A stretch of DNA of 64,000 nucleotides from Hydrangea macrophylla (lineage: Eukaryota > Streptophyta > Magnoliopsida > Cornales > Hydrangeaceae). The stretch lies in NCBI GenBank assembly GCA_033977485.1, contig CM066993.1, forward strand, positions 66,752,864 to 66,816,863. The letters run 5' to 3'. Position 1 is the stretch's first letter; every line of letters begins with the position of its first letter. Under the pieces are notes generated by a model. The model had not been told where the DNA came from, made no database searches, and worked only from the letters and a program-made list of their open reading frames with translations. The position numbers and the translations under genes were made by a program. Shown here one piece after another: positions 11,526 to 50,368 of the stretch.

Positions 11526-11702
11526 CTTTTGCTCACCCAAAATGTGGTACACCAATGTTCACCCAAGCATCCCATTGGCCAATACAGTGGGATCCAAGAT
11601 TAAACAAATATTGTTTAATGTTGTTTAATACTGAATTCCACTGCATTGGCCAATGAGATGCTTAGTGAGTATTGATATACCATTTTTTTGATGAGCAAAA
11701 AT
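11526..11702. mobile_element. Palindromic MITE (TTTTGCTCACC family), copy 1
   Basis: Ends TTTTGCTCACCCAAAATG / inverted TTTTGCTCATCAAAAAAATG. Arms of about 70 bp include the shared core attggccaat. Target duplication not resolved. Confidence 0.65.
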
Positions 11703-12953: not shown

Positions 12954-13085
12954 TAGTTGCACCGTACTACCGCTGTGGTTTTGATGCCAACATGTTGTAA
13001 CTTTGAAAACCACTTTAATTTTAAAACAAAAATCATTTTCAAAGTTACAACATATTGACACCAAAATGTGATTGTATGGTACAAT
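12954..13085. repeat. Imperfect inverted repeat, MITE-like
   Basis: The segment around acatgttgtaactttgaaaa pairs with ttttcaaagttacaacatat downstream. Arms are about 55 bp. No target duplication identified. Confidence 0.5.
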
Positions 13086-28671: not shown

Positions 28672-28843
28672 AGCTAACCGTTGAGCACGATCAACTTGAA
28701 CTTTGCTACGCGCCTATTTCTTTTGCAATGCATTTTGTTTTTACCCAAATCTGACAGTTTGGTCAAAAACTTGTCTTCACACAGGCTTCGACATTCACTT
28801 GTGACACGTGTTGCTTCACAAGCTCTGTCGAAAAGGGGCAAAC
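28672..28843 (+). repeat. Copy of the Tat element's 3' internal tail, upstream of its 5' LTR
   Basis: 172 bp that closely match 46714-46886, the segment just before the 3' LTR, including the polypurine tract aaaaggggcaaac. In a simple element this belongs only at the 3' side. Its left edge is an abrupt junction with the copia-like leader. Confidence 0.85.
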
Positions 28844-29036
28844 TATAGACACCTCAATTTTGACCAAACGTCGAGTTAAGGGGAGTATTACCTCTAAAAT
28901 CCGATGATGACAATGTCCGACCAATCTAGGGCTTCCAAAGGTGATCCAAGCTCTTCAAATGGCTCATCAATCCAAACAACAGGAAAGAAAGAGAAAAAAA
29001 GGGAAAACAAAGAAGAACGGTACATGGTGAAATATG

Positions 29037-29274
29037 CGGCAGTCACGGGTTATCGTGCGGCACTCACTTAAGTGCCGGAACGGCACTCTATGAATGCCGC
29101 AAATTTTACCAAATGCTGTGAAAAATGGATTTCTACAGAAAAACGGCAGTCTATGGAGTTGTCTGCGGCACTCCTTGAATGCTGTTCCGGCATTCACTGA
29201 ATACCATAACGGCAATCAGTGACTGCTGCATCGGCAATCACTAACTGCCGCTTCCATCTCCAGTGAGTGCCGCA
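29037..29274. promoter_or_regulatory. Palindrome cluster in Tat LTR U3
   Basis: Seven to eight imperfect copies of a roughly 19-bp palindrome of type CGGCAYTCACTGARTGCCG, for example at 29058-29077, 29081-29099, 29187-29206 and 29231-29250. It ends about 105 bp before the TATA-like box. The 3' LTR carries it at 47080-47320. Confidence 0.8.
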
Positions 29275-29378
29275 TTTTTGGGCAGACAGTTGTAAAACAG
29301 CACATTTTGTACCATCAAAAGGACATACGAAATCAGTATTTTTGCCCATGAAATTACTAAAATACCCTTTTAAAATTG

Positions 29379-29388
29379 TCTATATAAG
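29379..29388 (+). promoter_or_regulatory. TATA-like box in Tat 5' LTR
   Basis: TCTATATAAG in a GC-neutral context downstream of the palindrome cluster, a suitable RNA polymerase II promoter position. Conserved in the 3' LTR near 47424. Confidence 0.6.
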
Positions 29389-31509
29389 AAGGGTGAATAT
29401 CCCATTACAAGGGATGATAATTTCTTTGAATCTTCCAACCTTATCTTGATTCCTTCCTCTAAATCTCTAGAAAATTTTCTAAACATACTTAAGAGTTGCT
29501 TTTGTAATTTGAAAGAGAGGTTTGTGTGTGAGTTAGGATTGTGTGTGCGAGTTAGGGTTGAAGAGCTTGATTAACTTGTGGAAATCCTCCAAATCACCAA
29601 GTTGAGGATATTAGAGGTAGACTCTAGAATAAATCATTCTTTAAATACAAGTTAACTTGGCTAATGTATGAATGTTGAGTCTTTTTTTTTTTTTTTTGGT
29701 TGTATTCATCTCTTGGGACTCATGAGACTTTCAATGTCTCATTTGAATCTTGTGGTTTGAAATCTCTTGGTCTTCTTATAAGTTCATGGTTTATAAGAAG
29801 ATTAGGATTGATAATTAGCATGTTTGGTTGATAAGTTCAAATCCACCTCCATCGTTTGATCTTGTTATTCTAGGACTTTAAGAAGTTTCTTCATACTTCA
29901 TTGAAGTCTATCAAGTATGAGAGTCTTTAATCTTCCATGACCATCAAATGGTAGAAGAATTAGTTTAACTAAAGCCAAGTTTGATGGCTTAGTAGTTAAA
30001 ATCAGTAAGTAAAACATACATTAGACAAAAGATTCAGTGAGTGCATCAACCACTTTTCATCAAAGATTTTTAGTTAAACATCAAACCGTTGGAACTGAAT
30101 GAAACCAACGGGAAAGTGTCTATAACTCAAAGTTCTACCACTGTAATTTTTATTTTAGTGAGATTTCTTGTTTTAAGTGGTTTGGTCATGAGTTTTGCAA
30201 AGCAACAACAATATGTCCAGAATTTTAGAACAGTAACACCTCTTTGAAATAAATAAATCAGAACCCTAATCAAGTTTCCTTAGCCCCAAATAATTTTTCC
30301 TATGAATTTTAATGTGTTAATAAGACCCTCCAAAAAGATCAAACTGATTATGATTTTTTACTATTTTTAGAAAATCATACAAAACTTCTGGACAGAGAGT
30401 TAGAAATTCCTGAGTGATGTCTAGTTTTTGTTTGATTCCCAGAGATCTAACCATTGGAACTTTGATTTTCTTTTTGGGTTAGAAACTAGACTCACAAAGG
30501 CACCTTATGAAAAAAAATCATCAAGATCAAACCATTGGGATTATGCGTTTCGAATTCTTAAAGTTTTGGTCTGCTCTCTAGAATTTCTAGAATGTTGTGA
30601 CAGATTTGGTAAACTTTGCAAATAATGGCTCAAATGGTATTTGCATGAGTTAAGGTTTAAACCATGTTTCAATAATGATTAGTAATGGTTGAATTCAAAG
30701 TTTAGATGATCTAAATCAATGAGTGTTTCATAATTTATTCTTGTTCATGTATATATTCATCCATGTGACTCGATGCTTCTGATTAGGATTCGTTCCTTTA
30801 GATTTAACTATATTTGATAGAATAAAGCTAGAGGCCTAGGATCGTCATCTAACTTTATATCTTGTATATCATGTGGACTAACCTTTATTTTGTAGCGCCG
30901 ATGGGGTATGATCTCTCGATTCTCCCTTAGTTTAATTACTCCTTAATTTCATCGATTTTTCGACCTCATGTGCGACACATTAGAGTTAAAACTTACGTTA
31001 TGTGTATATGTGATTAGAGAGCTTTGTATTAGGATTTCAACTTTTGTATGCATTGCACGTTTAAATATTCGCAGATGGATCCCGGGTAAGTCTTCTAGTT
31101 CTCTATTTTGCATATCATATTGCTTGCTAATTGAACTACTTGGTTTTGAATGATATTTTGTCATTAGCAATTTTACACCATTTCAACATACTTGTGTAAT
31201 GTATATTTATATTTATGTATTAGTTGAGGGCATGCTTAGATTAATGGTTTGATTAAAAGGATGTTGAGTAGAGGCCTGTCGTGAGATAGGATAAGAGAGG
31301 TTGTTTTAGTCCGTCGGACTCCTTCCTCTTTCATTCCATAATCCCCAGACCTAGTTAATCTTTGGTTTCGCAAAAGGTCGGTTTGCTTTTAAAATAGTTT
31401 CTTAATTTTTCTTTTAAAAACTAAGTGGCGACTCATCATTTTTGAATTTGAATTTAAAAAGGTTTTAAACAAAAGCTGTGGGTAAGAGAAAATTGCGATA
31501 TCCACAATC

Positions 31510-31527
31510 TGGCGACTCTGCTGGGGA
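31510..31527 (+). promoter_or_regulatory. Primer binding site, tRNA-Arg type
   Basis: TGGCGACTCTGCTGGGGA starts 3 nt after the LTR end and is complementary to a tRNA 3' end. The complementarity continues to about 31561: the inverse shows a T arm with GGTTCGATCC, a variable region and an anticodon stem-loop with CTGCGAA (anticodon GCG). Confidence 0.85.
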
Positions 31528-31561
31528 TCGAACCCAGAATCTCTGGTTTCGCAGACCAGAA

Positions 31562-32827
31562 CTACGATTTTGGGTTCGCTTGAGGATTAGACTTGAAAGG
31601 CATCATTTTAATTGAATTGACTAATCTTTGTATACATGTTGCATTTCACTTGCATGTCTTGCCAGTCGATTGCACGGAACTATGACCTTGGAGGCTCAGG
31701 GCAACCCGGTCAGTCAAGCCATCATGGGACTGTGTGATCACCCTTGATCTCGTACCACGTGTTGGTATATGAAGCATCCTATCGGGTGTGTGTCGAGGGT
31801 CCCTTATTTTGACCAAAACCTGGCCTTTGCATAATAGTTTCTATAGAACCAATCATATGAAATCAATTCTTGATTAGGATTATATGCTAGGGAGTTTTGT
31901 ATGCTCGAAACGGATTACTTGAGATGATGACAATACTTACTTGATAAAAGATGTGTAACCTCTTAATCACTTTTGAGCAATTCCTCTTCATGTCCCATGA
32001 CATTTGAGAACATGCCAAATTATGATTATAAGATTCCACCTCTTATATCATGTTTAGATAAGCATCATTGACCTTGTATGTATCCGAATTCATGAAAAGT
32101 ACGGTGATGATCCAATCATGTGATCCTTCTACCCAAAAGATTTTAAATCCATCTTTGAAAGAAAATAGATTTTTTCCATCTCCGTTCCAAAAAATTTCAA
32201 TCGCTCTTTCAATAAAATCTTTGGAGTTCACCTTTTTTCTAAAGCTCCAAACTAATCTTTTATTGAAATATATATTTCCACATGATCATCTTCAAAAGAA
32301 AATTCCAAGGATCTTGAGGATTGTTTTCGTCTAAAGAAATGCTTTTTAAATGAACTTCAAAGTAAATTTTCAATCCAATCATTTTGGTGGAGGAATGTTT
32401 AAACATCCTCGTTCTCAAAAGAATTCGCGAGAATTGTTTAGGTTTTATCATCCAAGGAATAAATCCAACCTTCAAAAGAGGAACGAGGATCACAATGAGA
32501 GGAGAAATTGGCGCACTTGACATGGGTGAAGATTTTATATGCTTATGTGCCTATTTGCTAGGATTGGAATCTTCTTTTCTTTTTCATATAGAGTAGGCAC
32601 ACCCGCACACATGCATTGCATCCGTGTGACATATGAACCATTTCATCTCACCAAAAGTCTTTCAAAATATATACAATAAGAGATTTTTTTTTTTATAAAA
32701 GGAAAAGAAAATAGAAAATGTTTTGAAAAATATTTCCTTTTGTAGGGCAAATATAGCATCCAGTTCGGGCACGATTTGGTTTAGAGGTCCCACTACAAGG
32801 TTAGTAGGATGAGAAGAAGACAGAGAA
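31562..32827 (+). other. Tat leader between primer site and gag
   Basis: About 1.3 kb with no convincing gene. It includes a stretch near 31690-31800 rich in G/C and cca/tgg triplets and AT-rich sequence beyond. Long untranslated leaders are normal in this lineage. Confidence 0.7.
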
Positions 32828-34330
32828 ATGACAGATGAAAGGAACGATGGGGAAGTAGCAGAGTTAAGGACATTGGTAGAACAGCAAGCAGAGCAAATGA
32901 GACGACAGGCTGAGAATATGAACTGAATGATGGTCATGATAGAAGCGACAGCACGTCCGCCGCCAGTTGTGAATCCACCAAACAATGATCCGCCAATTAG
33001 GGAAGAAGGTTGGTATGAAGAGCCAGAGATGCCAAGGGCCGAGGCCCCCAGAGTAGAAAGAGAAAGGTTAGAAAAAGAGAAGGAGAGGATAATGACCGAA
33101 AAAATAGAGAAGCTGGAAAGGGCAATGCGAAAGGCTCAGGGGGTCGATACTTACCTGATGGAGCTGGAAGGTCTGTACGATGGGGTCCATGAAACACTGC
33201 CTGCCGAATTCAAAATGTCGGCCTTTGACAAATTTGATGGGACAGGGAATCCTCACAGCCATTTGAGAATGTGTATCGAGGCTTTCCAACCGAGTAGGCT
33301 GAGCATTACCATGATGGCTGTCTTATTTCAGCAGACTTTAACTAGAGCCGCTTTATCCTGGTACCTCACTCTCGAACCAAGTAAAACTCGAGTCTTGGAA
33401 GAAGTGATCAAAGCATTTGTGGCACAGTATGAGTACAATCAGGACTTGGACATCACGGTCCAAGATTTGGAGACCACTAGGCAGGGAAATAAGGAATCAT
33501 TTGCTAAGTATCCGAGTAGGTGGAAGGGAAAAGCAACTAAAATGGTACAGAGGCCGTCCGAGAAAGATCAAATCCGGATGTTGATGAAGAACCTTCAGCC
33601 TGTTTATTAAGAAAAGATGAGATTCCAGTCAATTAACACCTTCGCTGAGGTTTTTGATGTGGGAACAAGGATAGAGGACACGATCCAAGAAGGGGTAATC
33701 AAGAAGGAAGAACAATCGAATCAGTATAGAAGGTCGAGCTATGGATCAAATGGAGGACATTCGGGGGGTCACTCTGGCCCTACCGATGTCAACGCATTGA
33801 GTGGACCGAAGAGAAAGTTCGACACAACACCAAGAAGAGGAGGGGACAAACAGCCGAGGAAGTTTTCAGATTTGGGGGTATTACTATCAACCGCTCTTGA
33901 TAGGCTGATAGCGAAAGGGCATCTTCGCCCTTTGGAGCCTCGACCTCTACCAAGTCCGCTTCCACCAACCTTCCGAGAAGATCTTTATTGCAAGTTTCAC
34001 CAGTAAAAAGGTCACTCTACGGATCGGTGCATAAGGCTAAGGCACAAAATCCAAGACCTCATTGATAACAAGGTAATATCTGAGCTGCCTGTCATAGCTC
34101 CTAATCTTACTAGGAATCCACTGTCGAATCACCATGCTATGCCGCCACCGCAAGGCCTTTATTTCTTGGGGATAGAAGAGACGATCTTCGATCCATCTAG
34201 GCTAATCACTAAAGCCGGGATACTAAGGAAGCCTTATCAGATACCAGGAGATTCGATGATCTGTACTCTAGGGGATCAATTCGGAATATGTGGAAAGGGA
34301 ATGACAAAGTAATCAGATTGGTGGGACCAA
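32828..34330 (+). pseudogene. gag: Tat gag (broken)
   Basis: Capsid-like protein that would package the element RNA. Starting at ATG 32828 the frame shows a charged coiled-coil (ERERLEKEKERIMTEKIEKL), then the retrotransposon gag core (MSAFDKFDGTGNPHSHL, ALSWYLTLEP, FVAQYEYNQDLDITVQDLE), a glycine-rich stretch and a C/H knuckle-like YCKFHQ...GHSTDRC. In-frame stops at about 32924, 33608, 34004 and 34310 interrupt it, but the frame stays the same, so decay is by substitutions. Confidence 0.88.
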
Positions 34331-34528
34331 GAAACTGGCAACACCAATGTGGGTCAGATGGAAGATGACCTGTGGTATGAGAGCGATGGAGAAGGAGCAG
34401 AGGAAGAAAGCTTGAAAGTTGTTTCCGAAATTGACAATCTGTGGGCAAAAGAAGAAGTCAGTCATCTAACTCGGTCAGGGAGACACTTCAAACCGCATGA
34501 GCTAGAGGAGGATCACCCGGGGAGATAA

Positions 34529-35231
34529 TTGGATAAAGGAAAAGGGAAAACGAATGAAGAAGAGGAAGAAGATAGGGTTTTGAAGCAAATAAAGAAATCT
34601 CAGGCTAATATCACCATCTGGGGATTGTTGATTGCCTCCAAACGTCACCGGCAGACAGTTCTGGATGCCTTGAACCAATCCGACGTTTCTATCGACACAG
34701 CAGCAGAAGATCTCATAGGGATGATTAGTAGGATTTTCGACTCTTGCTATTACCTTTTCATCAGATGATCTACCTCCGGGAGGGCCTGTTCATAATAAAT
34801 CGCTATATGTCACTGTTGAGTGCTTAGGAAACATTGTGCCTGCCTGTCTTGTTGACAATGGGTCTGCTCTAAACGTGTGTCCATTCCAAATAGCTAAGCA
34901 CATAGGTTTGGATGAATCAACATTCATACCATCTAAGTAGAGGGTAAGAGCGTATGATAATACTCAGAGGAAGGTCATGGGGATAATTCTCCTTCATCTT
35001 GCTGTCGGGCCTGTGGAAAAGGAAGCTGAATTTCAGGTCATCGACATTTTCGCTTCTTTCAATTTACTGCTGGGGAGGCCATGGTTGGATAGTCTGGGTG
35101 TCATACCATCTACATCTCATCAGAAAGTCAAATGCATCTGGAAAAGCAAGGTCTGTGATATTCTCGGGGATAGTTGGGTCCGTTCGTCTGAAGCTTCAGC
35201 AAGCGTGCCGGTTCTGGAAGTACAATTTTAG
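34529..35231 (+). pseudogene. Tat protease (broken)
   Basis: Aspartic protease region. A frame shift near 34740 separates an upstream linker (TIWGLLIASKRHRQTVLDAL) from the catalytic motif CLVDNGSALNV at about 34845 (D-N-G in place of the usual D-S/T-G) and the second conserved segment FNLLLGRPWLDSLG. The active-site change and a stop near 34940 argue against function. Confidence 0.82.
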
Positions 35232-35257
35232 GAATAAGAGACAAGAGTTTATTAATA

Positions 35258-35418
35258 TGTTGGAAGAAGAGAAACCGAGAGAATTTCTGCCGCTGTATTT
35301 TGATCAGTACGCAAGTCCGTTGGTCGCCGAGATTATGAAAAAGATGGGTTTCTTCCCAGGCATGGGGCAGGGTAAAAATCATCAGGGTCTACCAGAGTTT
35401 CCAAGGATCCTCACTTAG
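35258..35418 (+). pseudogene. G-patch-like segment between protease and RT
   Basis: The sequence MKKMGFFPGMGQGKNHQGLP resembles a G-patch (glycine-rich RNA-binding motif), which Tat-lineage polyproteins carry after the protease. It is followed by stops and a linker. Confidence 0.6.
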
Positions 35419-35529
35419 ACTCACACTCATGGTCTGGGTTATCATTCATAGAAAAAAGAGCTGAGAGAGAAGAAGAAGGCAACTGACGCACCATTGGACC
35501 CTTACCTAAAGATGCTCAATTGATACTTT

Positions 35530-37650
35530 GTGAAGGAGGGAGAGGATTTCCCCTTTTGTGGCTTCCCAGCACCATGGGTGGATCGGAAAGACAATTGTTT
35601 AAAGCCAGGGTTTGAGATCTTCTTCCCCCACGAATTCTCTGAGTATCAAGATCCATATCTACAGGTGCCCGTGAAGTCAGCTGCTGCTACGGATTGGATT
35701 GGTGCTCTGGATGGTTCAGTCATGAAGAACCTGTTGGGCGAAGAAAGCATGAAAACCGAGGGAACGGGCCAAGAAAGGGTCATGGAAGACAAGGCCGAAA
35801 AAGAGCATGCTAAGGGTTGGGTACAAGAGGAAGAACCGAAAAAAGAAGAGATGGAGGAGATTACCAAGATAGGGGATCTGGAGGAATGCTTCATCACCGA
35901 TCTCGAAGGGGAAAACAAGAAAGAGTGGGTTTTCAAGTCTACTGATAGGTACCCCCCACACCCAGAGTCTGTAATGGCCCAAATGAGGCGTCTTTCAATT
36001 TCCATGTCTATTGTAATCACTCCAAAGAAAATCAATGAAAGTATGACTAATTCTGCCTACTCGAATGTGCTTAATGAATGTGATGAATGTGATGATCATG
36101 AAATACCAAATGAATTGCAAAAATTAATCGAAAAAGAAAAAGAATCTTCATGTAAGATCATTGAGAACACTCTAACGATCAATCTAGGAAATGAAGATAA
36201 TCCTCAAAATGTTTTTATTGGCTCTACACTTAGCAAAGAAGAAAGCAAAGAATTAATCAATCTATTAAATGAATTCAAAGATGTTTTTGCATGGTCTTAC
36301 AGAGATATGCTAGGTGTCGATCCGAAAATAGTTCAACACCACATCCCCCTCTTTCCCAATTTAAAACCTGTAAAACAAAATTTGAGGCGAATGAGGCTTA
36401 AATGGGCACTCAAAGTCAAAGAGGAAGTTGAAAAGCAATTGAGAGCCTGATTCTTAATGGTCACCGAGTATCCAGAATGGATCGCCAATATAGTGCATGT
36501 TCCGAAAAAAGGACAGTCGTGTTAGGGTTTGTGTCGACTTCCGGGATTTGAACAGAGCCAGCCCTAATGACAATTTTTCTTTACCTCACATTAATGTGTT
36601 AGTGGACAATACTGCAGGGCACGAGCTCTTGTCTTTTATGGATGGATTCTCAGGGTATAATCAGATTCTAATGGCGCCCGAGGATAGGGAGAAAACCACT
36701 TTCATCACACCATAGGGCACGTACTGCTACAGGGTGATGCCGTTTGGGCTTAAAAATGCGGGCGTAACTTAGCAGCGAGCCGCTACAACGTTGTTGCACG
36801 ATATGATCCATAAGGATGTAGAAGTGTATTTGGACGATATGATTGTAAAATCTAAGGAGAGGAAAGGACACTTGGGTGCATTAAGAAAGTTCTTCGAAAG
36901 GTTAAGAGAATTTAGAATGAGGCTGAACCGTCAGAAGTGCACCTTCGGAGTCACTACCAGAAAGTTATTAGGGTTTCTCATCACTCAGAGAGGGATAGAG
37001 GTGGACCCGACCAAAATAAAGGCTATAATCGAAATACAGCCGCCCAAGAATGAGAAGGAATTAAGGGGATTTCTAGGTAGAATACAGTTCATAAGCCATT
37101 TTATCTCAAAACTCACCCTTACCTATGACCCTTTGTTTAAACTGGTTAGAAAAGGAGAAAAGTTTAAATGGGATACCTTATGTCAACAAGACTTCGAAAA
37201 AGTCAAAACCTACCTTCAAAATCCGCGTGTCTTATCACCACCCTTACCCGGAAGACCTTTACTGTTGTACCTTTCCGTATCTGAAGATTCAATGGGGTGT
37301 ATGTTGGCCCAAGAAGGAGAAGAGGGGCACGCAGAAAGAGCCATCTATTACTTGAGCAAAAGGATGACTGGATACGAGTTAAAATATTCGCCTTTAGAAA
37401 AAGCCTGTTGGGCTTTGGTCTAGTGCACCCGTCATCTTAGGCACTACATGTTGGCCTTCCCCGTAACCCTGATATCCCAAATGGACCCACTTAAATACCT
37501 GTTTGAGAAACCCGTGTTGACCAGTAGAATTTCCCGATGGACCATGATGCTAGCCGAATTCGATATCAAATATGTCACTGCCAAGTTTGTAAAAGGAAGA
37601 GCTGTCGCTGAGTTTTTAGCCAATCTCGCCATAGAATCCGAGGATAAGGA
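35530..37650 (+). pseudogene. Tat reverse transcriptase and first RNase H (broken)
   Basis: An acidic linker (35530-36200) leads into the RT. Motifs seen: LLNEFKDVFAWSYRDMLGVD, then after a frameshift near 36485 VRVCVDFRDLNRASPNDNF, LSFMDGFSGYNQI, VMPFGLKNAG, and the catalytic VYLDDMIVKS near 36828 with both aspartates kept. The thumb (KLLGFLITQRGIEVDP) and connection to RNase H follow, with YYLSKRMTGYELKYSPLEKA and, at the end, FVKGRAVAEFLANL. Stops near 36448, 36714, 36770 and 37421 break it. Confidence 0.9.
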
Positions 37651-37683
37651 AGAATTTAAGTTTCCTGATGAGGGAGTAATGGA

Positions 37684-38080
37684 GGTGAAAGAGGACTTGT
37701 GGAAAATGTACTTTGATGGAGCAGCCAACCAACTAGGCTACGGGGTTGGAATCATTCTCATAGCACCCGATGGGACCCCCACCCCATTATCTGTCAAACT
37801 CAAGTATGACTCAACCAGTAACACGGTAGAGTACGAAGCATGCATAATAGGAATGAAAGCGGCATTGGCTTTGAAAGTCTAGAGGATTGATGTTTTTGGA
37901 GATTCTAACTTGATCATATCTTAAGTTCGAGGTGATTGGAGGGTGAAGCACGAGAAATTAAGACCCTACTATGACTATCTGGAAAGTTTAAAGGTGCAGT
38001 TTGAGAAAATATCATTCTATTACCTCCCCCGTGAAGAGAATCAGCTAGCCGACTCCTTAGCCACCTTAGCCTCAATGATA
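37684..38080 (+). pseudogene. Second RNase H domain of the Tat element
   Basis: WKMYFDGAANQLGYGVGIIL, then EYEACIIGMKAALAL, VFGDSNLII and REENQLADSLATLA give the D-E-D-D layout of a complete cellular-type RNase H. A duplicated RNase H after the first one is diagnostic of the Tat lineage. Stops near 37880 and 37922 interrupt it. Confidence 0.85.
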
Positions 38081-38329
38081 CAAATTCCCTCAGGAACTAC
38101 CATGATCCCGCTATCCATAGAAGTAAGAAATCAGCCTTCGTTTAAAATGATCGCAGCCATAGAAGAGGAGAGTGAGCTGCCTTGGTATGAGGATGTATGG
38201 AACTTCATTAACAGGGGAGAGTACTCCAATGGAGCCTCGGAAAAGGACAAAAAGGCAGTGCGACTATTCTCCGCGCAGTTTGTGATCTACGCGGATAAGC
38301 TGTGGAAGAAATCCTACACCGGGTATAAT

Positions 38330-39425
38330 TTGGAATGCTTGTACGGGAGGAGGCCAAGAGAATGATGGAAGAAATACATGAAGGAGTGTACGGGCCCCAC
38401 ATGAACGGGCACATGCTGGTGAAGAAGATAATCTGGCAAGGATATTATTGGATGACCTTGGACAAAGACTGCTGCGAGTATGTTCGGAGGTGCCATAAAT
38501 GCCAAATCCATGCGAACCTGATGCACACCTCCCCGTCTCAGCTCTATAGCATGACTACGCCTTGGCCGTTTTTTGACTGGGGTATTGATATTATTGGTGA
38601 GATAGTCCCAAAGGCCTCCAACGGGCACCGATACATAATCGTAGCAATTGATTATTTTACCAAGTGGGTAGAAGTAGCCTCGTATGCGACTTTGAAAGCC
38701 AAGGATGTGGTGAGTTTCATTGAAAAGAACATAATTTGCAAATACGGGTCCCAAATGAGTTCATTTTTTATGACGGTAGTCATTTCCAAGGAGAAGTCAT
38801 CCCGCTGTTAGAAAAGTATAAGATCACCCGTCACCAGTCATCTCTATATAGATCGCAAATGAATGGGGTGGTAGAGGTAGCAAATAAGAATGTCAAAGCG
38901 ATCTTGGGGAAAACGACAGACCCATATAAGGATTGGCATGAGAAGCTTCCATTTGCGCTATGGGGATACCGGACTTCCGTGAAAAATTCTACAGGAGCTA
39001 CACCGTATTCACTAGTTTATGGGATGGAAGTCGTCCTTCCCGTCGAGGTGGAGATACCCTCTCTAAGGGTTTTTGCCGAATGTGAAATAACTGAGTTATA
39101 ATGGACACGGGGGAGGTATGAGAAATTTATGTTGCTTGATGAAAATAGGTTGGCCGCAATAAACCATACTTGGGGATATCAGAAGAGGATAGCTTGAGCT
39201 TTCAACAAAAAGGTCCGTCCAATGAAGCTTGTTGAGGGCGACCTGGTTCTCAAAGAACTGAAAGTGCCTGTTTATGACCCCAGAGGAAAATTCAAACCCA
39301 ACTGGGTCGGGCCATACATCATTAAGACTCTCCTCTCTGGAGGAGTGACCTATCTTATGGACCTGGACGGGGTTGAATTTAAACAACCAATTAACCTTGA
39401 TCGCCTCAAGAAATACTTTGCTTGA
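38330..39425 (+). pseudogene. Tat integrase (broken, catalytic Asp lost)
   Basis: The zinc-binding HHCC region (HEGVYGPHMNGH ... CCEYVRRCHKCQIH) is intact, as is the first catalytic Asp (FDWGIDIIGEIV). Two frameshifts (near 38340 and 38750) follow. At the second catalytic site the sequence is FIFYDGSHFQGE, where Tyr occupies the expected Asp position. The Glu in VVEVANKNVKAIL remains. The C-terminal PNWVGPYIIKTLL part ends at a stop at 39425. Confidence 0.88.
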
Positions 39426-40100
39426 AACCACTTCTTTCAAAGCCTCCTACATTGATGAACTACGCTTGACTTGATTCCCGCTAGGGGATACATAGGCAAC
39501 CTGCTCGGTTCGGTCACTAATAATTGACTAAATGGCACTTTCTGTCAAGCCTTAAATCGAACTATTGCGGACCTGATATCCATTCGAGGATAAGTAGGCG
39601 GGATCTCGAAAGCCTTCAGTCCATGAAACCTAAAAAGAAAAACCATGTGCTAACTAGGGGCAAACTTGCGTTTGCCCGGAACCACTTCGAAGCCCCAAAA
39701 CCAGGGGCAAACTTCGTTTGCTATCCGAAGAACCCAGATATTTACTTTAAACCCGTCTCTGGATCTCCTGGCTATTAAAATAAGTACTATAAAAGAACAA
39801 ACAAAAATTCATGGTATAGAATGATTAAAACTTTAGGCAAAACTCAAAGCAAAGTAAAGAGCCAAGAAAAGACATTAAAAGAAAAATTTTCATAGCTTAA
39901 AAGATTAATCGGTAGAGTGAACACTTTGATTAAACATGTCAGAACATTTCCTAAAGAGAAGAACACTCTTTGAGAAGAGAAATGAGAAGAATCACATTCA
40001 AAAGCGTAAAAGGATAGGCAGGACTTGTCTGAAATTTTACAAAATAAAGCTTGGTCCTGTTGTTTTGCTTTCATCCATGTATGTCTGCAAAGTCTGTCCC
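39426..40100 (+). other. Tat 3' region, proximal part
   Basis: Non-coding. It contains two copies of the lineage-typical motif GGATAcaTAGGCaaCC / GGATAaGTAGGCGGGA and inverted gggcaaact/agtttgccc pieces near 39655-39725. A similar GGATACGTAGGCAGC lies near 46702. Confidence 0.65.
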
Positions 40101-40104
40101 TGGA

Positions 40105-41126
40105 TCAGAGTTTGGATTTGAAGAAGGTACTCAGTAGTAGGCATGAGCAAAAAAGAGTTGACACTCTGTCATACCAAGCCTCAATGAAAGCCTTCACAAT
40201 GGAAGGGTGCATGATCGAACCCCTCGTGAAATCAGCAGTAATAGCCTCAGTAATATCCTGGAGAAGCCCATACTGATGAACCACCCGGCCAGGAATATAA
40301 AAAGTGGTAGCATGCAAGCCAGGCATCCAGATACCAGATCGCCCGGGAAGCCGTACGGCTATGGAAATGTAAGACCATTGTAGGCAGATCCAACAGATAT
40401 CACCAGCAGAAAGACCTCGGAGCCAACCAAGCCAAGCATCGGCAGAACGGAATAGGCGGTGAACCTCCATATGGTCGTAGGGAAGTGACCCGCGAAGGTG
40501 TGAGGGGTGTATGAAGAGATCAAGGCGCTCCATGAGCCAAACCTGTAAGATGAAGGGTGCCCCCGAAGATAACATAGCCCCAACAGTGTGGGCACGGTCC
40601 AAACCAATCAAGGTTTCACCAAGGATCAGCATAATGGCGCTCTTCATCTCCCGTAAACCGTAAACAACGGGAATGAGAACATCAGAAGATAACTGAAAGA
40701 AGAAGTAAGAAAGCATGGCTATCGATAAAGCACTACGCCGAATGACTTGATACCCACCGTCATAAGGATCCCCCATCGGAGAGTAGACGGAAGAAAGGCG
40801 TTCAAAGTTAATTTGTCGGTCTTGAACAAAAAAGCTTGCTACGTTTCAAGATGTGTGAAAGAGAACAGCGAGGTCCTAGACATACCCGGCCTGTGCTAGA
40901 GGAACTATCGGATCCGCAAAAGGATTAGTGTGCAAAATAACGCTAAACTCCTCAAATAAGGGGCAGATCTCTTGGAAGCCAAAGAGAAAGACGTGGAGAG
41001 AAGGATCCCAACACCGAATGGCAGATTGAAGCAAACCTTCATTTAGAATCATCCGTCGGAAAGAGATGAGATCATTTAGTCTGAACACTCAAAGTAGAGC
41101 CTGTCAATGCCAGAGAGAGTATCCAT
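40105..41126 (-). pseudogene. Antisense gene 2: PMD-like protein (broken)
   Basis: On the minus strand, opposite to the element's own genes. A probable ATG is at 41126 (MDTLSG), a one-base shift near 41088, then a frame with ISFRRMILNEGLLQSAIRCW, FGFQEICPLFEEFSVIL, LSYFFFQLSSDVLIPVVYGL, ETLIGLDRAHTVGAMLSSGA and LQVWLMERLDLF. These resemble the plant mobile domain family, found in plant cellular proteins and carried by some Mutator and gypsy elements. Stops near 40879 and 40834 break it. Upstream lie a TATA-like CTATTTATAG (41221-41232, minus strand) and a palindrome cluster. Its role in the element is unknown. No introns are obvious. Confidence 0.68.
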
Positions 41127-41220
41127 CCATGGGAAAAGGACTTGGGAGCTAATGGGAGCCATTTGATAATAGGGTGAATGGGAGGAAAGAGTGTTTTTAC
41201 GGAATTGTAAAAAAAGTAGG

Positions 41221-41232
41221 CTATAAATAGGA
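41221..41232 (-). promoter_or_regulatory. TATA-like box for antisense gene 2
   Basis: On the minus strand CTATTTATAG lies about 95 bp before the probable ATG and about 20 bp after the palindrome cluster. Confidence 0.45.
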
Positions 41233-41248
41233 GCAGAACTGCCCAGAA

Positions 41249-41385
41249 CATGGGGCGGCGCTCAATAAAGCATAACAGCACTCTACGAAGTGCCGTGCGA
41301 CAGTCCGTGAATGCCGTACGACATTCACTGACTACCGTCGCGACATTCACTGAGTGCCGCTGAAGCCTAACCGAGTGCCACTTGG
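41249..41385. promoter_or_regulatory. Palindrome cluster upstream of antisense gene 2
   Basis: Five to six imperfect units of the same type as in the LTR, for example CGACATTCACTGAGTGCCG at 41341-41359 and related units at 41297-41340. Confidence 0.75.
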
Positions 41386-41807
41386 AGTTTTATTTTGGCC
41401 AGGATGTGTTTGTAATGTTTTCAGCCCACCTGTAAACAAAAATTGAATAAAAACAATAAAACATGTGCATCATGCAGCATATGCAACAATACCAAGCTAT
41501 GGTCACAATCATTCATTCATTCATTCACATGGATAAGTGATAGAAGCGGAACAATGCTCACAAGATCACAGAAAAATAAAAAGGGCTAAAATGAAATAAA
41601 AGGACCAAGCCATGGTCCTACATACAATGAGCAATAGTAAGAAATAGAAAAAGTGAAAAGCAATCGCAATAAAGTAATGCAGATGCCTATCCTATCTCAG
41701 CTATCCAGGAACCATCATAATAATAAGTGAGTATATATGCATACAGTCATCCAAGTATGTGAATCCTTCCCAAAACACTCATAAATAAAAAAGAGGGAAA
41801 AGTAAGG
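41386..41807. other. Spacer between the two antisense genes
   Basis: AT-rich, with (cattcatt)n near 41507. It is upstream of gene 2 and downstream of gene 1 on the minus strand. No coding signal. Confidence 0.6.
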
Positions 41808-44594
41808 TCAGCCCCGGCCTCGAGTTTGGCGGGTCACGCGTCTGAGGCGCTCCTCCTCTGACTCTGTGTCTCTTCCGCTACCACCTCTGCCATTGCCTTT
41901 GCCTCATCCTCGACCGCCACTGCTGCCTCCATCGCTGCCTCTGCCTCATCCAGCAGTGCTACCCCCAAGGGCATCACTAAGGCTAATGCCGAACTGCTGA
42001 AGTCGCTGCTGAAGCTCTCCTACATGTCGGGCCAAAGCCCCAATCTGTTCCACTTGAACGGAAAAAACAAATCAAATTACCAAGTAGTATTTAAAAGTTG
42101 AAATGCCAAAAGCGAGCATAAGTAAAAAGGAGCATTTATTTTTCACCAAAGCTCTCGTGTGAGCCTCAGCAGCCGCCCGCGCCCTGTCAGCCTAAGTCAA
42201 AGAAAGAAGGGTTAGAACGTCAGAATGAGAACGCAAAATTTAAAATAGAAGGCAAGTTTTAAAGATTACCCTCCACTCTCGGCCATAGATCCTCTCTCTT
42301 ATGCTGTGAGCGTAGAGTAAGCCCTCCTCTGCATAGTCCCGCTAAACATGATCGTACTGGAGTGGAATGGTAGGAGCACCCGCCTGAAATCTAAGGATCG
42401 TGGTCGTACCCCGCTTGCCATAAGAGTCCGTCCTAAGGCTCCAATCCCAAGGAGGAAGAGCTGGAGCCCGAGCCGCAGCAGGAACATGCTGCAAAGAAGA
42501 AAAATGAATTCAGTAAGAAGGTGTGCATGTATGGTTAAGAATTAAAAGAAAGGATAAAAGAAACTCACCCAAGTCACTTCCATCAGAGGGAAGTTCGGCA
42601 TCAGCTTGGCGGCCCAGAAAGCTGCATACCCGTCTGGAGGCTCCACGAAACCTTGAATAGAGGATCCAGCCAAGGCAATCGTGAGTACGGAACCCTGAAT
42701 GGTCCTCGTAGCCCTCATCGACTCAGGTGGGGGATGCGGCATGAAGAATGACTCAACATCCAAAGACTGCCTGTTCACCCTTTCCCCTAGATATCACTCT
42801 CGGCCCTCCGGACCCTCTAACAAAATCCTCTGTGGGTCATACCCAGCTGATTCCCGTATCCCCTGGGAAGCATCGGGTAGCACGTCGAGCCAAGGCTGCC
42901 ATCGGAAGTGCGACTCTTGTAGATTCATAAAGAAATTCCTAAACGAGACAAAATCATGAGCCCTAGTCTTTCGCCCCATTCGCTCCTTCACCCACTTCAG
43001 ACCCTGAGGCATAATGAGGGCGTCCACCGGTCGTTTCTCAGGCGACATCATATATAGATACTCGTGGGACCAAATCTGCAAGAAAAGAAAAAAAATCATA
43101 AGTTTCAGGGTTCATAATTAAGAGACTGAAAGGAAAGCACAAGGTTTAAATAAGAAATAGTAGAAAGGAGAAGTATACCTCCCACGCTCTCCAGAAGCCG
43201 CCTGTGGAAGTCGACCGGTCTTGAGAAATCTCTCCCATATGCCTGTACAGGACGGCTAATCCTGTATCGGCCCAGTCATACTAGTAAATCTCTCCTATCT
43301 GCTCCAGGGATCCCAACAGCACCACAGAGATCCGATCACCCTTAGTGCTCAGTAGAGAGCACCCCAGCACGTACATGATAAAGCCCCGGGCCGTCTGCTC
43401 CTTTGTAAAACCCTGCTGGCCTCTGAAGGTGTCCATGAACCACTTAGCTGTGACCAAGGGCTCCTCTGGGGCGACTCCTAGAAGTGGCTCGACTCGGTCC
43501 CACTCGGTCACCATGTCCAGGTAACGGAGGCACTCCCCCCCGAAAGGGATCCCAGTGATCGTAGAGAAGTCCAAAGGGGTCATCTTCATCTCCCCGAACG
43601 AGAAGTGGAATGTGTTGGTGGTGTCCCACCACCGCTTGGAGAGCGCATGAATCTGCCTTAAATCATTAGAGCTCTTCGTCAGGAGTTTGACGAAGTCCCT
43701 AAAACCCGCGACGTTTACGAGCCCCTTCATGGTCTTGCTCAACTCCTCATACCAGGCAAAGCCGTGAGCTAGGCTGTCGTGTCCTTTCAGCACGTCGAGC
43801 TGAAGCTGCAAAAAAAATTGCAAGGTTCAAATGTCAGCAAGTGAATGAAAGAATGAAAGGAAATAAAGAAACAAAGAGTGAAAAAAAAAAAGAAAAGAAA
43901 ATAATAATAATAAAAGTAATAATAATGAAAGTGCAGTGATAATAAAAGAGGAATGAATAAGGAAAGGAGTGAAGAAGAAAGTGTTCAAAGTACTTAAGGG
44001 ATTTCACAAAGTTTGAAATTCACTTTCTTGATAAAACATAAATATTCAAATCAATTTTGAGCGAGTGAAAGGGCGATTGTAACACTCGAAAAATTCATAG
44101 GCATAATGGTCATTATTCATGAAGAATGTTTGAAGTCTTGATCAACATGCATCGCATTCAAAAGTCTTGGAGAAAAGTTGAAGGAAAAATAATGAAATTG
44201 ATACAGGTGAACCATTCGTAAAATTCACAGGCACATCATTCATTTTCATATGAAGTTTTGTCTCTACATTCATAAAGTTCATAGGGAGTAAGATAAAGAA
44301 TACAAAAAAATTGAATGAGCATTGAATAAAGCATTTGAAACGCTCGAGAACGCTACAAGCACAACATTTGCATTCATAATAAGGTGTGTGAAGTTGTGTT
44401 GATTGTGCATTGCATTCATGAGGTTCATAAGGAAAAATAAATACAAGAAAAGGAAATTAGGGAGGAGCGTGTACCTCGTGCTTGAACGCGCGGGCAGACA
44501 AGTGTGCATCCCGGTCCCGGAGCAAGAATGATGGATCGGGATGAGGGGTAGCCACGTACTTGGCCTTCTTCCTGCTCCTCAAACTGCTAGCCAT
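41808..44594 (-). pseudogene. Antisense gene 1: spliced plant mobile domain (PMD) protein
   Basis: A six-exon gene on the minus strand inside the retrotransposon. Exons are 44475-44594, 43179-43805, 42569-43075, 42270-42488, 42147-42191 and 41808-42044. All junctions are GT-AG and every exon is a multiple of three (120, 627, 507, 219, 45, 237), giving about 584 codons. It starts MASSLRSRKKAKYVATPHPD. Exon 2 holds the PMD core (FRDFVKLLTKSSNDLRQIHA, ALSKRWWDTTNTFHFSFGEM, DFSTITGIPFGGECLRYLD). The tail is a short coiled coil (ELQQRLQQFG) followed by a Gly/Arg/Ser-rich end. In-frame stops in exons 2, 3, 4 and 6 look like single substitutions, several consistent with C-to-T change. The PMD family is known from plant cells and from some transposons. 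Its function here is unknown. Confidence 0.75.
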
Positions 44595-44812
44595 GACCTA
44601 TCACAAGAAAAAAGGAACGGAATGTTAATCCTTTAAAAGAATTCAAGAAAACAACAAAAATAAAGAGAGTGTTGAGATTATGATTGAGTGAAACTGACCT
44701 GTGGACCCTCTAGGTCAATGCAAGAAAAATGGGAAAAATCTCCAGAGGATTTTGGATTAGAGAGATTGTGAAGAGTGAAATGAAAATGGGTTGAAAACCC
44801 ATGTTTAAGCAA

Positions 44813-44950
44813 TCTGCCGCTTAAACGCGACACTCAATTTTTGTGCCCGATAGTTGGTAGAGTGCCGGGCCGCACTCGCTGAGTGCCGCAGCGGCATTCC
44901 GTGAGTGCCGTTCGGTAGTTACGGATTGCCGCTTTTTTCAAGCATGTGCC
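44813..44950. promoter_or_regulatory. Palindrome cluster upstream of antisense gene 1
   Basis: Units CCGCACTCGCTGAGTGCCG (44871-44889), GCGGCATTCCGTGAGTGCCG (44891-44910) and TCGGTAGTTACGGATTGCCG (44912-44931), same type as in the LTR, about 220-350 bp before the gene's ATG. Confidence 0.78.
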
Positions 44951-45063
44951 GCGTTTGAGGCGGTTAGAAGATATTTTGTTTCCCCCCAAAATTCAAAATT
45001 GGGTCCCAAAAATTGAATTTGAACCCCCAGAATTTGCCCTCGTTATGCTTTCCAGGACCAAAT

Positions 45064-45590
45064 TGGCTCCCAATTTTGTGAAATTGAAATAAATTTGAGT
45101 CTGTTGGACTCCAGATTTTGAAAATTGAAAGAAATTTGAGTCTGTTGACTCCAGATTTTGAAAATTGAAAGAAATTTGAGTCTGTTGGACTCCAGATTTT
45201 GAAAATTGAAAGAAATTTGAGTCTTTCGGACTCTAGATTTTGAAAATTAAAAGAAGTTTGAGTCTGTTGACTCCAGATTTTGAAAATTGAAAGAAATTTG
45301 AGTCTGTTGGACTCCAGATTTTGAAAATTGAAAGAAATTTGAGTCTGTTGGACTCCAGATTTTGAAAATTGAAATAAATTTGAGTCAGTTGGACTCCAGA
45401 TTTTGAAAATTGAAAGAAATTTGAGTCTATTGGACTCCAGATTTTGAAAATTGAAATAAATTTGAGTCTGTTGGACTCCAGATTTTGAAAATTGAAATAA
45501 ATCTGAGTCTGTTGACTCCAAATTTTGAAAATTGAATGAAATTTGAGTTTGTTGGACATTTGAAATGAATTTGAGTCTGTTGGACTCCTG
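45064..45590. repeat. Tandem array of about 42-bp units (12-13 copies)
   Basis: Unit gactccagattttgaaaattgaaagaaatttgagtctgttg-type, 40-42 bp, with copies differing by a few substitutions or a lost GG. Because the spacing is near a multiple of three, long open frames appear on the minus strand, but these are a by-product of the repeat. Arrays in this location are known from Tat/Ogre 3' regions. Confidence 0.95.
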
Positions 45591-45618
45591 AATAATCAAA
45601 ATATGATTAACTCCAAAG

Positions 45619-46278
45619 TTTTGGGAATATAACAGATTTAAATTCTCAGTCCTCGCAACAGATTTGCGTAGGCCTCGCTCTTGGGAATATAACAGATTTA
45701 CATTCTCGGTCCTCACAACGAATTTGCGTAGGCCCCACTCTTGGGAATATAACAGATTTATATTCTCTGTCCTCGCAACATATTTGCATAGGCCACGCTT
45801 TTGGGAATATAACAGATTTATATTCTCGATCCTCGCAACAGATTTGTGTAAGCCCCGCTCTTGGGAATATAACAGATTTATATTCTCGGTCCTCGCAAGA
45901 GATTTGTGTAGGCCCTGCTTTTGGGAATATAACAGATTTATATTCTCAGTCCTCACAACAAATTTGCGTAGGCCCCACTTTTGGGAATATAACAGATTTA
46001 TATTCTCAGTCCTCACAACGGATTTGTATAGACCCCGGTCTTGAGAATGTAACAGATTTAAATTCTCGGTCCTCGTAACGGATTTGTGTAGGCCCCGCTC
46101 TTGGGAATATAACAGATTTATATTTTTAGTCCTCGCAATGGATTTGTATAGGCCCCGCTCTTGGGAATATAACAGATTTATATTCTCGGTCCTTGCAACG
46201 AATTTGCGTAGGCCCCGCTCTTGGGAATATTACAGATTTATATTCTCGGTCCCCGCAATGGATTTGCGTCAGCCAAGC
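45619..46278. repeat. Tandem array of exactly 60-bp units (11 copies)
   Basis: Unit begins ttgggaatataacagattta and continues tattctcggtcctcgcaacg. Period is 60 bp throughout without indels. Copies differ by scattered substitutions. Directly adjacent to the 42-bp array but unrelated in sequence. Confidence 0.97.
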
Positions 46279-46713
46279 CTTCGAGAAATTTCCCTCTGAT
46301 TGACGCATCATACCTCATCTAATAAAACATATGGCGTAGAGCAAATATGTCCAATGAGACCGAACGACTGTAGACTTTCAGAGCAAACTCACATTGACAC
46401 TGGGGTTTAAGTCACGAAGCGCTGCCCAGTCAATTGCATTTGTCCTTTGGCCGAAACGGTCGTGTAACTTGAAGAGAATTGACATGAGCATTGAGTAGCA
46501 TAGGGTATGAATTGATTCTAGGAACATCGAGATTCCATGATTTCGAAATCGTATCATTCACAGAGCATGTAATTGCATCAATAGTCATCATTTGCATGAG
46601 CACGTGCATCACGATAGGATAGGTGCATTCATTCGTATAGCTACTTGTATTTGTGTATGTTTGTCCCTGGCCCGAGCTACGTCTCGATCTGATTCCTGAA
46701 AGGATACGTAGGC

Positions 46714-46886: not shown

Positions 46887-48880
46887 TATAGACACCCCAA
46901 TTTTGACCAAACGTCGGGTTAAGGGGAGTACTACCTCTAAAATCCGATGATGACAATGTCCGACCAATCTAGGGCTTCCAAAGGTGATCCAAGCTCTTCA
47001 AATGGCTCGTCAATCCAAACAATAGGAAAGAAAGAGAGAAAAAGGGAAAACAGAGAAGAACGACTCATGGTGAAATATACGGCAGTCACGGGTTACCGTG
47101 TGGCACTCACTTAAGTACCGGAACGACGCTCTATGAATGCTGCAAATTTTACCAAATGCCGTAAAAAATGGATTTCTACAGAAAAAGGGCAGTCTGTGGA
47201 GTTGTCCGCGGCACTCCTTGAATGCCGTTCCGGCATTCACTGAATGCCGTAATGGCAATCAGTGACTGCCGCATCGACAATCACTGACTGCCACTTCCAT
47301 CTCCAGTGAGTGCCGCATTTTTGGACAAACAGCTGTAAAACAACACATTTTGTACCATCAAAAGGACATACGAAATCAATATTTTTGCCCCTGAAATGAC
47401 TAAAATACCCTTTTAAAATTATCTATATAAGAAGTGTGAATATCCTATTACAAGGGATGAGAATTTCTTTGAATATTCCAACCTTATCTTGATTCCTTCC
47501 TCTAAATCTCTAGAAAATTTTCTAAACACACTTAAGAGTTGCTTGTGTAATTTAAAAGAGAGATTTGTGTGTGAGTTAGGATAGCTTGATTAACTTGTGG
47601 AAATCCTCCAAATCACCAAGTTGAGGATATTAGAGGTAGACTCTAGACTAAATCATTCTTTAAATACATGTTAACTTGGCTAATGTATGAATGTTGAGTC
47701 TTTTTTTTTGTTTTTGGTTGTATTCATATCTTGGGACTCATGAGACTTTCAATGTCTCATTTGAATCTTTTGGTTTGAAATCTCTTGGTCTAACCATTGG
47801 AACTTTGATTCCCAGAGATCTAACCGTTGGAACTTTGATTTTCTTCTTGGGTTAGAAACTAGACTCACAAAGGCACCTTGTGATAAAAAATCATCAAGAT
47901 CAAACCATTGGGAGTATGCTTTTCAAATTCTTAATGTTCGGGTCTGCTCTCTGGAATTTCTAGAATGTTGTAACAGATTTAGTAAACTTTGCAAATAATG
48001 GCTCAAATAGTATTTCCATGAGTTACGGTTTAAACCATGTTTCAATAATGATTAGTAATGCTTGAATTCAAAGTTTAGATGATCTAAATCAATGAGTGTT
48101 TCATAATTTATTCTTGTTCATGTATATATTCATCCATGTGACTCGATGATTGTGATTAGGATTCGTTGCTTTAAATTTAACTATATTTGATAGAATTAAG
48201 CTAGAGGCCTAGGATCGTCATCTAACTTTAGATCTTGTATATCATGTGGACTAACCTTTGTTTTGTAGTGCCGATGCGGTATGATCTCTCGATTCTCCCT
48301 TAGTTTAATTACTCCTTAATTTTATCAATTTTTCGACCTCATGTGCGACACATTAGAGTTAAAACTTGCCTTATGTGTATATGTGATTAGAGACCTTTGT
48401 ATTAGGATTTCAATTGTTGTATGCATTGCATGTTTAAATATTCGCAGCTGGACCCCGGGTAAGTCCTCTAGTCCTCTATTTTGCATATCATATTGCTTGC
48501 TAATTGAACTACTTGGTTTTGAATGATATTTTGTCATTAGCAATTTTATACCATTTTAACATGCTTGTGTAATGTATATTTATATCTACGTATTAGTTAA
48601 GGGCATGCTTAGATTAATAGTTTGATTAAAATGATGTTAAGTAGAGGCCTATCACGAGATATGATGAGAGAGGGTGTTTTAGTCCGCCGGACTCCTTCCT
48701 CTCTCATTGCATAATCCCCGGACCTAGTTAATCTTTGGTTTCGCAAAAGATCATTTTACTTTTAAAATGGTTTCTTAATTTTCCTTTTAAAAATTAAGTG
48801 GCAACTCATCACTTTTGAATTTGAATTTAAAAAAGGTTTTAAACAAAAGCTGTGGGTAAGAGAAAATTGCGATATCCACA
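46887..48880 (+). repeat. 3' LTR of the Tat element
   Basis: Matches the 5' LTR from TATAGACACC to GATATCCACA but lacks about 650 bp that correspond to roughly 29775-30425. At the junction (near 47790) a short segment, taaccattggaactttgatt, is present twice. The flank right of it is aacgt. Confidence 0.9.
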
Positions 48881-50368
48881 AACGTAGGATCGTAGTGACG
48901 ATGAGATTAGCTGATAATGGTTGTGACGTTAGATAGTGTAACAATTGTAAATCCTTTGGAGTTATCGTTCATTTTATTCAAGGTAGTCAGGCTACATAGG
49001 ATTGTCATGTATCGATGTTAGAGTTAAACTTAAGTAGGTTTGTTAAGATTCAGGAATCTTGCATGGGCGGGCCTTGGTCGATCATATATTCTTAAAAGCG
49101 ATAGACAGACGAAGGTGTTTATGACATGCGGTGAACTGGACCAGTAGCCCTAAGATAGCCAGATGATCTAATCATATGTTCTTAAAAGCGATAGACAAAC
49201 GAAGGTGCCTATGACATGCGGTGGACCGTGATCACTGGTAGACATCGCTAAGTCGTGGCATAGAATGATGTATTATTGCTTAAAACGTTATATCCCTGTA
49301 ATGCGGTGAACTTGGAATATGTTCTTAAAAGCCGGGGATGGACTGACGTGGTGTCCATGACATGCGGTGACTGTGCATATGTTCTTAAAAGCGATAGACG
49401 AAGCAATGGTGTATCTATAGAAGTGAACTACTGCCGAGTTTGTTCTACTGTAGAATGTGTTGTCAGTCTTAATCTATTAAGACGTTAGTAATCGGATGAT
49501 TATTTGATTAAAGGAGTTACCCCCACTGAATTTAATGGTTATTGTTTAAAACTTGTAATAACTTCAATAGTTGATACCCTGTTAGTATCTGATTCACTCA
49601 ACTTTCATTAAGCTGACGACGTTGATGCCGCTAGACATTTCTATGTTCCAGCGCACCATAGTTATTACTATATAGGTGAAGGACCTACTAGCGGGGACTA
49701 CTATGTCGGTGATGATGTCCCTATAGAAGATTACCCCGACAAAGGTCAGCCAGAAGAAGACTACTATGCTGAGGACTACCTCTACGCCAATTGAAGATTA
49801 CGCTGGATAGCAGTTTAATTATCTTTACTGTTTTTCGATCTTTATGTAATCAGGCATATGTTGCCTTGACATTTGTATTATTGTTATGTTTTATTTGATT
49901 CGAGACTCTGATGTATAATAGTTAGTAACTTTCTATTGACTTTAAGTTATCTTTATCCAGAACCAAGATTACATTCTTGTTATCTCTTTTCCTTATCACT
50001 GCTTAGTACTACGTAGTGTGGACAATCATGTGACTTCACCAATCGCTGCCTTTGGACCCAAAAAGAAAATTTAATAGTTAGTAACTTTCTATTGACTTTA
50101 AATTATCTTCACCAATCGCTGCTTAGTACTAAGTTATTCGAGACTTCACCAATCATGTGACTATTACTCTAATGTGTAATAGTTAGTAACTTTCTATTGA
50201 CTTTAAGTTATCTTTATCCAGAACCAAGATTACATTCTTGTTATCTCTTTTCCTTATTGCTGCTTAGTACTACGTAGTGTGGACAATCATGTGACTTCAC
50301 CAATCGCTGCCTTTGGACCCAAAAAGGAAATTTAATTTTCTCTATTTTTGCCATTCCAAGGCATGACA
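48881..50368 (+). repeat. LTR remnant of the Tekay-like element
   Basis: The segment before the primer site ends GGCATGACA. It contains repeats of atgttcttaaaagcgatagac with gacatgcggtg (starting near 49088, 49170, 49319 and 49379) and a roughly 160-bp direct duplication (49917-50075 and 50167-50334). A tyrosine/acid-rich open frame ending YYAEDYLYAN at about 49793 is of unknown meaning. The left border is lost. Confidence 0.5.

What the first reader, a model, noticed from the sequence alone, without database searches (positions are those of the whole stretch)
29037..44950. Same palindrome module in the Tat LTR and upstream of both antisense genes
Units of type CGGCAYTCACTGARTGCCG occur in four clusters and, as far as I can see, nowhere else in the window: both LTR copies (29037-29274, 47080-47320), 41249-41385 and 44813-44950. 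The last two lie upstream of antisense genes 2 and 1. In the LTR and for gene 2, a TATA-like box follows the cluster (105 and about 20 bp). This looks like one set of operator-like or enhancer sites controlling both the sense transcript and the antisense genes. The PMD protein could be the regulator, but that is inference.
Basis: partly seen in the sequence, partly recalled or inferred. Interest (0 to 1): 0.8.

Follow-up and report, generated by a model that had tools for sequence, protein, structure and literature searches.

The report
Retrotransposon promoters share palindromic control sites
A plant jumping gene carries the same short mirror-image DNA sites next to the promoter that copies it and next to its two backward-facing genes, and one of those genes makes a protein predicted to fold like a known transposon protein that binds repeated sites to escape silencing.

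Summary
In the window the units lie only in the four claimed clusters (21 hits over both strands, 0.03 expected). Genome-wide there are 48,660 forward matches (<=2 mismatches) against 2 for the reversed pattern. All 20 sampled sites lie in copies of this element type, at LTR U3, upstream of antisense gene 1 (PMD) or upstream of gene 2. Of gene-1 upstreams picked without the motif, 20 of 20 carry units.

Best reading: self-encoded, VANC-like control of both promoters. Binding and direction of effect are untested.

The parts
28844..31507 (+). 5' LTR (approximate ends)
   Evidence: BLAST of the two copies; left end where other 5' LTR copies begin to match (28842-28846); right end before the primer-binding-like site TGGCGACTCTGCTGGGG at about 31510 (PBS identity recalled)
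29037..29274 (.). palindrome array in U3 of LTR1, 6 units at <=3 core mismatches plus half-sites
29380..29388 (+). LTR TATA-like box CTATATAAG
   Evidence: read directly; like boxes lie 78-193 bp after the last unit in 17 of 19 other LTR clusters
32927..39426 (+). gag-pol region (decayed)
   Evidence: ORFs; Pfam gag, RT and RNaseH hits
40105..41162 (-). antisense gene 2 (decayed): weak DUF7745 and weak PMD C-terminal matches, both below Pfam cut-off
   Evidence: presumed ATG 41162-41160 read directly
41221..41230 (-). TATA-like box CTATTTATAG of gene 2
   Evidence: kept in L020
41249..41385 (.). palindrome array upstream of gene 2, 3 units at <=3 core mismatches plus half-sites
42794..44594 (-). 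antisense gene 1 (decayed, apparently with introns): PMD protein
   Evidence: PF10536 at 43281-43826 (E 1.6e-12) and 42794-43111 (E 5.1e-8); presumed ATG 44594-44592 read directly
44813..44950 (.). palindrome array upstream of gene 1, 3 units at <=3 core mismatches plus half-sites
46887..48881 (+). 3' LTR (approximate ends)
47080..47320 (.). palindrome array in U3 of LTR2, 6 units at <=3 core mismatches plus half-sites

Best explanation
The units are protein-binding sites: inverted half-sites CGGCANTC/GANTGCCG in a 19-bp frame, mostly 20-22 bp apart (about two helix turns, so neighbours face the same side of the DNA). They serve one regulatory circuit of a Tat-type Ty3/gypsy element, at the LTR promoter (genomic RNA) and at the promoters of the antisense accessory genes. 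The most likely binder is the element's own antisense gene-1 product, a PMD protein, working as TE-encoded VANC proteins do: it recognises its own family by arrays of a short motif in non-coding DNA and keeps those promoters active or unsilenced, its own included (positive feedback). Shown: the sites, their positions and recurrence, two motif versions each matched between LTR and gene-1 promoter in the loci examined, and a predicted PMD fold resembling VANC21. Inferred: binding by PMD, dimeric binding, activation or anti-silencing as the direction of effect, and feedback.
Confidence: 0.55

Rival explanations
1. The arrays bind a host transcription factor that the element has recruited at each of its promoters; the antisense PMD protein does something else.
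For: Shared sites at several promoters need only one common factor; LTRs commonly recruit host factors (general knowledge). Nothing here tests who binds.
Against: Two motif versions matched between LTR and PMD-gene promoter within elements of one genome, alongside PMD divergence, are easier with an element-encoded factor; the gene next to the array encodes a protein predicted to resemble a DNA-bound anti-silencing protein.
Confidence: 0.25
2. The element's own protein binds the arrays but as a repressor: it limits its own expression and transposition (autorepression, copy-number control).
For: Arrays lie upstream of, and in gene 2 very close to, TATA-like boxes. Host PMD proteins MAIN/MAIL1 take part in TE silencing as well as in activation of some genes (PMC7156037, section 17).
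Against: The closest fold match, VANC21, is an anti-silencing protein (PMC5735166, passages).
Confidence: 0.1
3. The product of antisense gene 2 (DUF7745-like, weak PMD-like C-terminus), alone or with gene 1, is the binder.
For: Gene 2 too lies next to an array in the first family.
Against: In the second family the readable gene-2 upstream lacks an array (L059), and the VANC21 match was found for gene 1; gene 2 was not modelled.
Confidence: 0.04
4. The arrays are minisatellite-like repeats spread by recombination or conversion, without regulatory function.
For: Array form; in the second family LTR and gene-1 modules share about 64 bp at 84-88% identity; the same elements carry other long tandem arrays.
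Against: Units within an array differ yet correspond by position between diverged copies; arms are kept while position 6/14 and the centre are free (units found by their arms); units lie beside promoters and not elsewhere in the window's element.
Confidence: 0.04
5. The units act as RNA or DNA hairpins.
For: Each unit could pair over 8 bp with a 3-base loop.
Against: No excess of complementary arms except a modest one at 6/14; on the element's sense strand in LTR arrays the wobble-tolerated combination T6-G14 (13) and the unpaired C6-A14 (7) both occur, a difference too small to weigh.
Confidence: 0.02

Closest known systems
VANC21/VANC6 anti-silencing proteins of Arabidopsis VANDAL transposons (PMC5735166, passages read; solved structure 9lnj seen as a hit)
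   Same: TE-encoded protein; short motif arrayed at high density in the TE's own non-coding DNA; motif differs between related TE families along with the protein; predicted PMD fold resembles VANC21
   Different: Carrier here is an LTR retrotransposon, not a DNA transposon; site is a 19-bp inverted repeat, not a one-direction 9-base motif; gene product is PMD, not DUF1985 at cut-off; binding and demethylation not shown
Antisense accessory genes (aORF-3R) of Retand, Grande and RIRE2 elements (PMC11963269 abstract and passages; PMC7264820 passages)
   Same: Genes antisense between pol and 3' LTR; Grande gene23 has its own promoter and a nuclear product; a regulatory role was proposed
   Different: Those passages describe no palindrome shared between LTR and antisense promoters; there the usual antisense domain is TRP28 (97% of clusters), here PMD and a DUF7745-like protein
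Host PMD proteins MAIN/MAIL1 with the 'DOWN' promoter motif (PMC7156037, section 17 and passages read)
   Same: PMD proteins tied to a promoter motif; direct binding was left as an open hypothesis
   Different: Host genes in a complex with PP7L; no TE promoter array
Retroviral transactivators acting at LTR sites: HTLV Tax with 21-bp repeats, foamy virus Tas at LTR and internal promoter (recalled, no call)
   Same: A retroelement's own regulator acts through sites in the LTR, and for Tas also at an internal promoter of accessory genes
   Different: Unrelated proteins, sense-strand genes, animal viruses

Membership tests
Tat/Retand-type Ty3/gypsy LTR retrotransposon | gag and pol with RT and RNase H between two LTRs | tested here: met
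   Pfam gag, RVT_1 and RNase H hits; LTR pair
Tat/Retand-type Ty3/gypsy LTR retrotransposon | long pol-3' LTR region with antisense ORFs and tandem repeats | tested here: met
   feature as described in PMC11963269
Tat/Retand-type Ty3/gypsy LTR retrotransposon | TRP28 (PF04195) in an antisense ORF (97% of Retand clusters in PMC11963269) | tested here: inconclusive
   No PF04195 hit in the antisense pieces scanned at E <=1 or <=10, but copies are decayed and scanned in pieces; PMD and weak DUF7745 found instead
Tat/Retand-type Ty3/gypsy LTR retrotransposon | placement by RT phylogeny | not tested
   no tree built
VANC-type anti-silencing system | protein with DUF1985 | tested here: not met
   Element's own PMD exon: PF10536 only, no DUF1985 at E <=10; 12 of 41 relatives match DUF1985 below cut-off
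VANC-type anti-silencing system | fold of VANC21 | tested here: inconclusive
VANC-type anti-silencing system | target motif arrayed in non-coding regions of its own TE family and rare elsewhere | tested here: met
   (sampled, not exhaustive)
VANC-type anti-silencing system | motif and protein diverge together between related families | tested here: inconclusive
   Two matched versions, PMD 47.5% identical, but the second-version loci were chosen as paired sites
VANC-type anti-silencing system | sequence-specific binding and loss of DNA methylation on targets | not testable with these tools
   needs EMSA, DAP-seq or methylome data

The most novel reading that the evidence does not exclude
Plant mobile domain proteins are the VANC-like, sequence-specific self-recognition factors of large LTR retrotransposons: an antisense gene encodes the factor, palindrome arrays in the LTR and in that gene's own promoter are its address tag, and tag and protein diverge together, giving at least two separate address codes in one genome. 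Host MAIN/MAIL1 would then be domesticated members of the same DNA-binding superfamily.
Probability: 0.45. Interest if true: 0.9.

Novelty: new variant of a known kind. Interest (0 to 1): 0.76.

Why it matters
The function of the antisense genes of Tat/Retand elements is given as unknown in both papers consulted (PMC11963269, PMC7264820). A defined DNA site shared by the LTR and the antisense promoters, plus a fold link from PMD to a DNA-bound anti-silencing protein, makes that question directly testable with a 2 x 2 binding experiment. If true, it would extend VANC-type self-targeted anti-silencing from DNA transposons to LTR retrotransposons, and suggest what the PMD domain of host MAIN/MAIL1 does.

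Tried and rejected
Hairpin reading: set aside. PDB sequence search with PMD, single sequence and profile, found nothing relevant. Four arbitrary 5-kb stretches (L029-L032) had no unit at <=3 core mismatches, too small a sample to weigh. I followed the element around L053 and L054 to find a second-family gene 1 without using its motif: no PMD was found in L054, L060 and L061 or L062, so this is uninformative. In L058 gene 2 is cut by the edge of the stretch, so its upstream could not be read; in L059 it could and has no array. Two further loci have partial gene-2 matches without an array beside them (L014, L017), where the 5' part of gene 2 was not matched. Prior art: searches listed no paper that I recognised from title or abstract start as describing a palindrome shared by LTR and antisense promoters; one search found no paper holding both 'plant mobile domain' and 'DUF1985'. 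That covers only the open-licence library. A motif-blind survey of second-family gene-1 promoters (DNA search with L055:5645-6307) did not complete. Papers: PMC11963269 abstract, outline and passages; PMC7264820 passages; PMC7156037 passages and section 17; PMC5735166 passages; PMC8756742 one passage; others seen only in listings.

Full report
WHAT WAS CLAIMED AND CHECKED. A search with <=3 mismatches gave 21 hits over both strands, all in the four clusters, against 0.03 expected. A looser 14-base core gave 18 of 19 hits in the clusters (6 in LTR1, 3 upstream of gene 2, 3 upstream of gene 1, 6 in LTR2); one weak hit lies outside at 17612, and at 4 mismatches three more, all outside.

SETTING. 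The window belongs to a 2.22-Gb genome in 19 contigs, species unnamed; a plant, judging by the element and the PMD gene. The element has gag and RT/RNase H domains, two LTRs (about 28844-31507 and 46887-48881), a primer-binding-like site near 31510 and two antisense genes. Gene 1 carries a plant mobile domain (PF10536, E 1.6e-12). Gene 2 has a weak DUF7745 match and a weak PMD C-terminal match, both below cut-off. This copy is decayed.

GENOME-WIDE. I fetched 20 ten-kb regions, picked by hand from about 100 exact matches listed for contig C1. All 20 hold copies of this element type: the matching cluster is in U3 in 19 and upstream of gene 2 in L020. Gene-1 arrays are present in the 5 loci that cover that region (L009, L010, L012, L018, L028; the first three are near-identical copies). 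Gene-2 arrays are seen in L010, L019 and L020; L014 and L017 have partial gene-2 matches without one. U3 around the array is often not alignable to the window by BLAST although the units are there. Three extra clusters appeared: one in a further LTR of the same kind (L019), two in LTRs of another family (L024, L028), see below.

MOTIF-BLIND TEST. A search with 381 bases of the gene-1 5' region, without the array, returned 40 scored copies. I fetched the upstream 378-381 bp of 20 of them. All 20 hold at least one unit (two of them only one), 46 in all, against a mean of 0.12 and a maximum of 2 in 50 shuffles. All 46 are of the first version and none of the second. These copies are relatives (>=79% identical in the query), so this shows regular presence, not independent origin.

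ANATOMY. In 126 units the arms CGGCA and TGCCG and the inner TC and GA are strongly conserved; position 6/14 and the centre are free (units were found by their arms, so the free positions are the unbiased part). Of 98 neighbour distances below 200 bp, 84 are 20, 21 or 22 bp. Arms do not covary except for a modest excess at 6/14 (63 of 126 against 46.8). This fits a dimeric protein site better than a hairpin. In LTRs a TATA box follows the last unit by 78-193 bp in 17 of 19 clusters; none was found in 2. Between diverged copies, unit columns of the gene-1 and gene-2 arrays are more alike than flanks (0.851 against 0.704; 0.789 against 0.626; 4 sequences each). In a stricter test that leaves out the sequence used to find the units, the excess holds for gene 1 (0.838-0.873 against shifted means of 0.643-0.728; 2 to 16 of 222-248 shifts reach it). 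It is weaker for LTRs (0.824-0.878 against 0.794-0.823; 0 to 90 of 335-378 shifts), with no real excess in L016.

A SECOND ADDRESS CODE. LTRs in L024 and L028 carried units with the same outer arms but TGG-N-CCA-like interiors. I then searched for CGGCANTGGNCCANTGCCG: 25,847 forward matches with <=2 mismatches against 92 in the control. I fetched three places where two such sites lie 2.5-2.9 kb apart (L055-L057). All three hold a PMD gene, 47.5% identical over the exon to the first family's, with second-version units upstream of it and in the adjacent LTR, and no first-version units. In a table of 28 regions with units, none mixes versions: 18 first, 10 second. The choice by paired sites favours this outcome, and the two modules share about 64 bp at 84-88% identity, so copying between them is possible. 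In the one second-family copy where the start of gene 2 and its upstream could be read (L059), no array precedes it.

CONCLUSION. The shared array is real, widespread in this genome and tied to promoters of both strands. The best explanation is a self-encoded, VANC-like regulator (antisense gene 1, PMD) recognising palindrome arrays at the LTR, at its own promoter and in the first family at gene 2's. The cis part is shown; the trans part is inferred. It works like a VANC system on present evidence but is not filed as a member: the protein is not DUF1985 at cut-off, and the carrier is an LTR retrotransposon.

Noticed in passing
window 28672-28843: LTR1 is preceded by 172 bp homologous to the sequence before LTR2 and followed by the primer-binding-like site, as if it were the middle LTR of a tandem or recombined element. 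An LTR in L053 shows the same two-sided context.
   Followed up: partly
window 29774-30430: Present in LTR1 and absent from LTR2; other copies such as L016 and L018 contain most of it, so LTR2 has probably lost it.
   Followed up: partly
window 45025-46400: Two tandem arrays, period about 41 and 60 bp, between gene 1 and the 3' LTR; L060 has an array in the same kind of place.
   Followed up: no
window 3377-4396: About 1 kb that is 90% identical to its own reverse complement, a large fold-back; smaller ones at 8721-8913, 11527-11700 and 12979-13066.
   Followed up: no
L059 528-1583: Second-family gene 2 with an open frame of 352 aa stop to stop, related to gene 2 of the first family (38-42% by piece), without an array in the about 590 bp before its presumed ATG; it might be transcribed together with gene 1.
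   Followed up: partly
P0001, P0012 (relatives of window 43281-43826): Possible deep relation of the PMD family to DUF1985/VANC, by weak sequence matches and predicted fold.
   Followed up: partly
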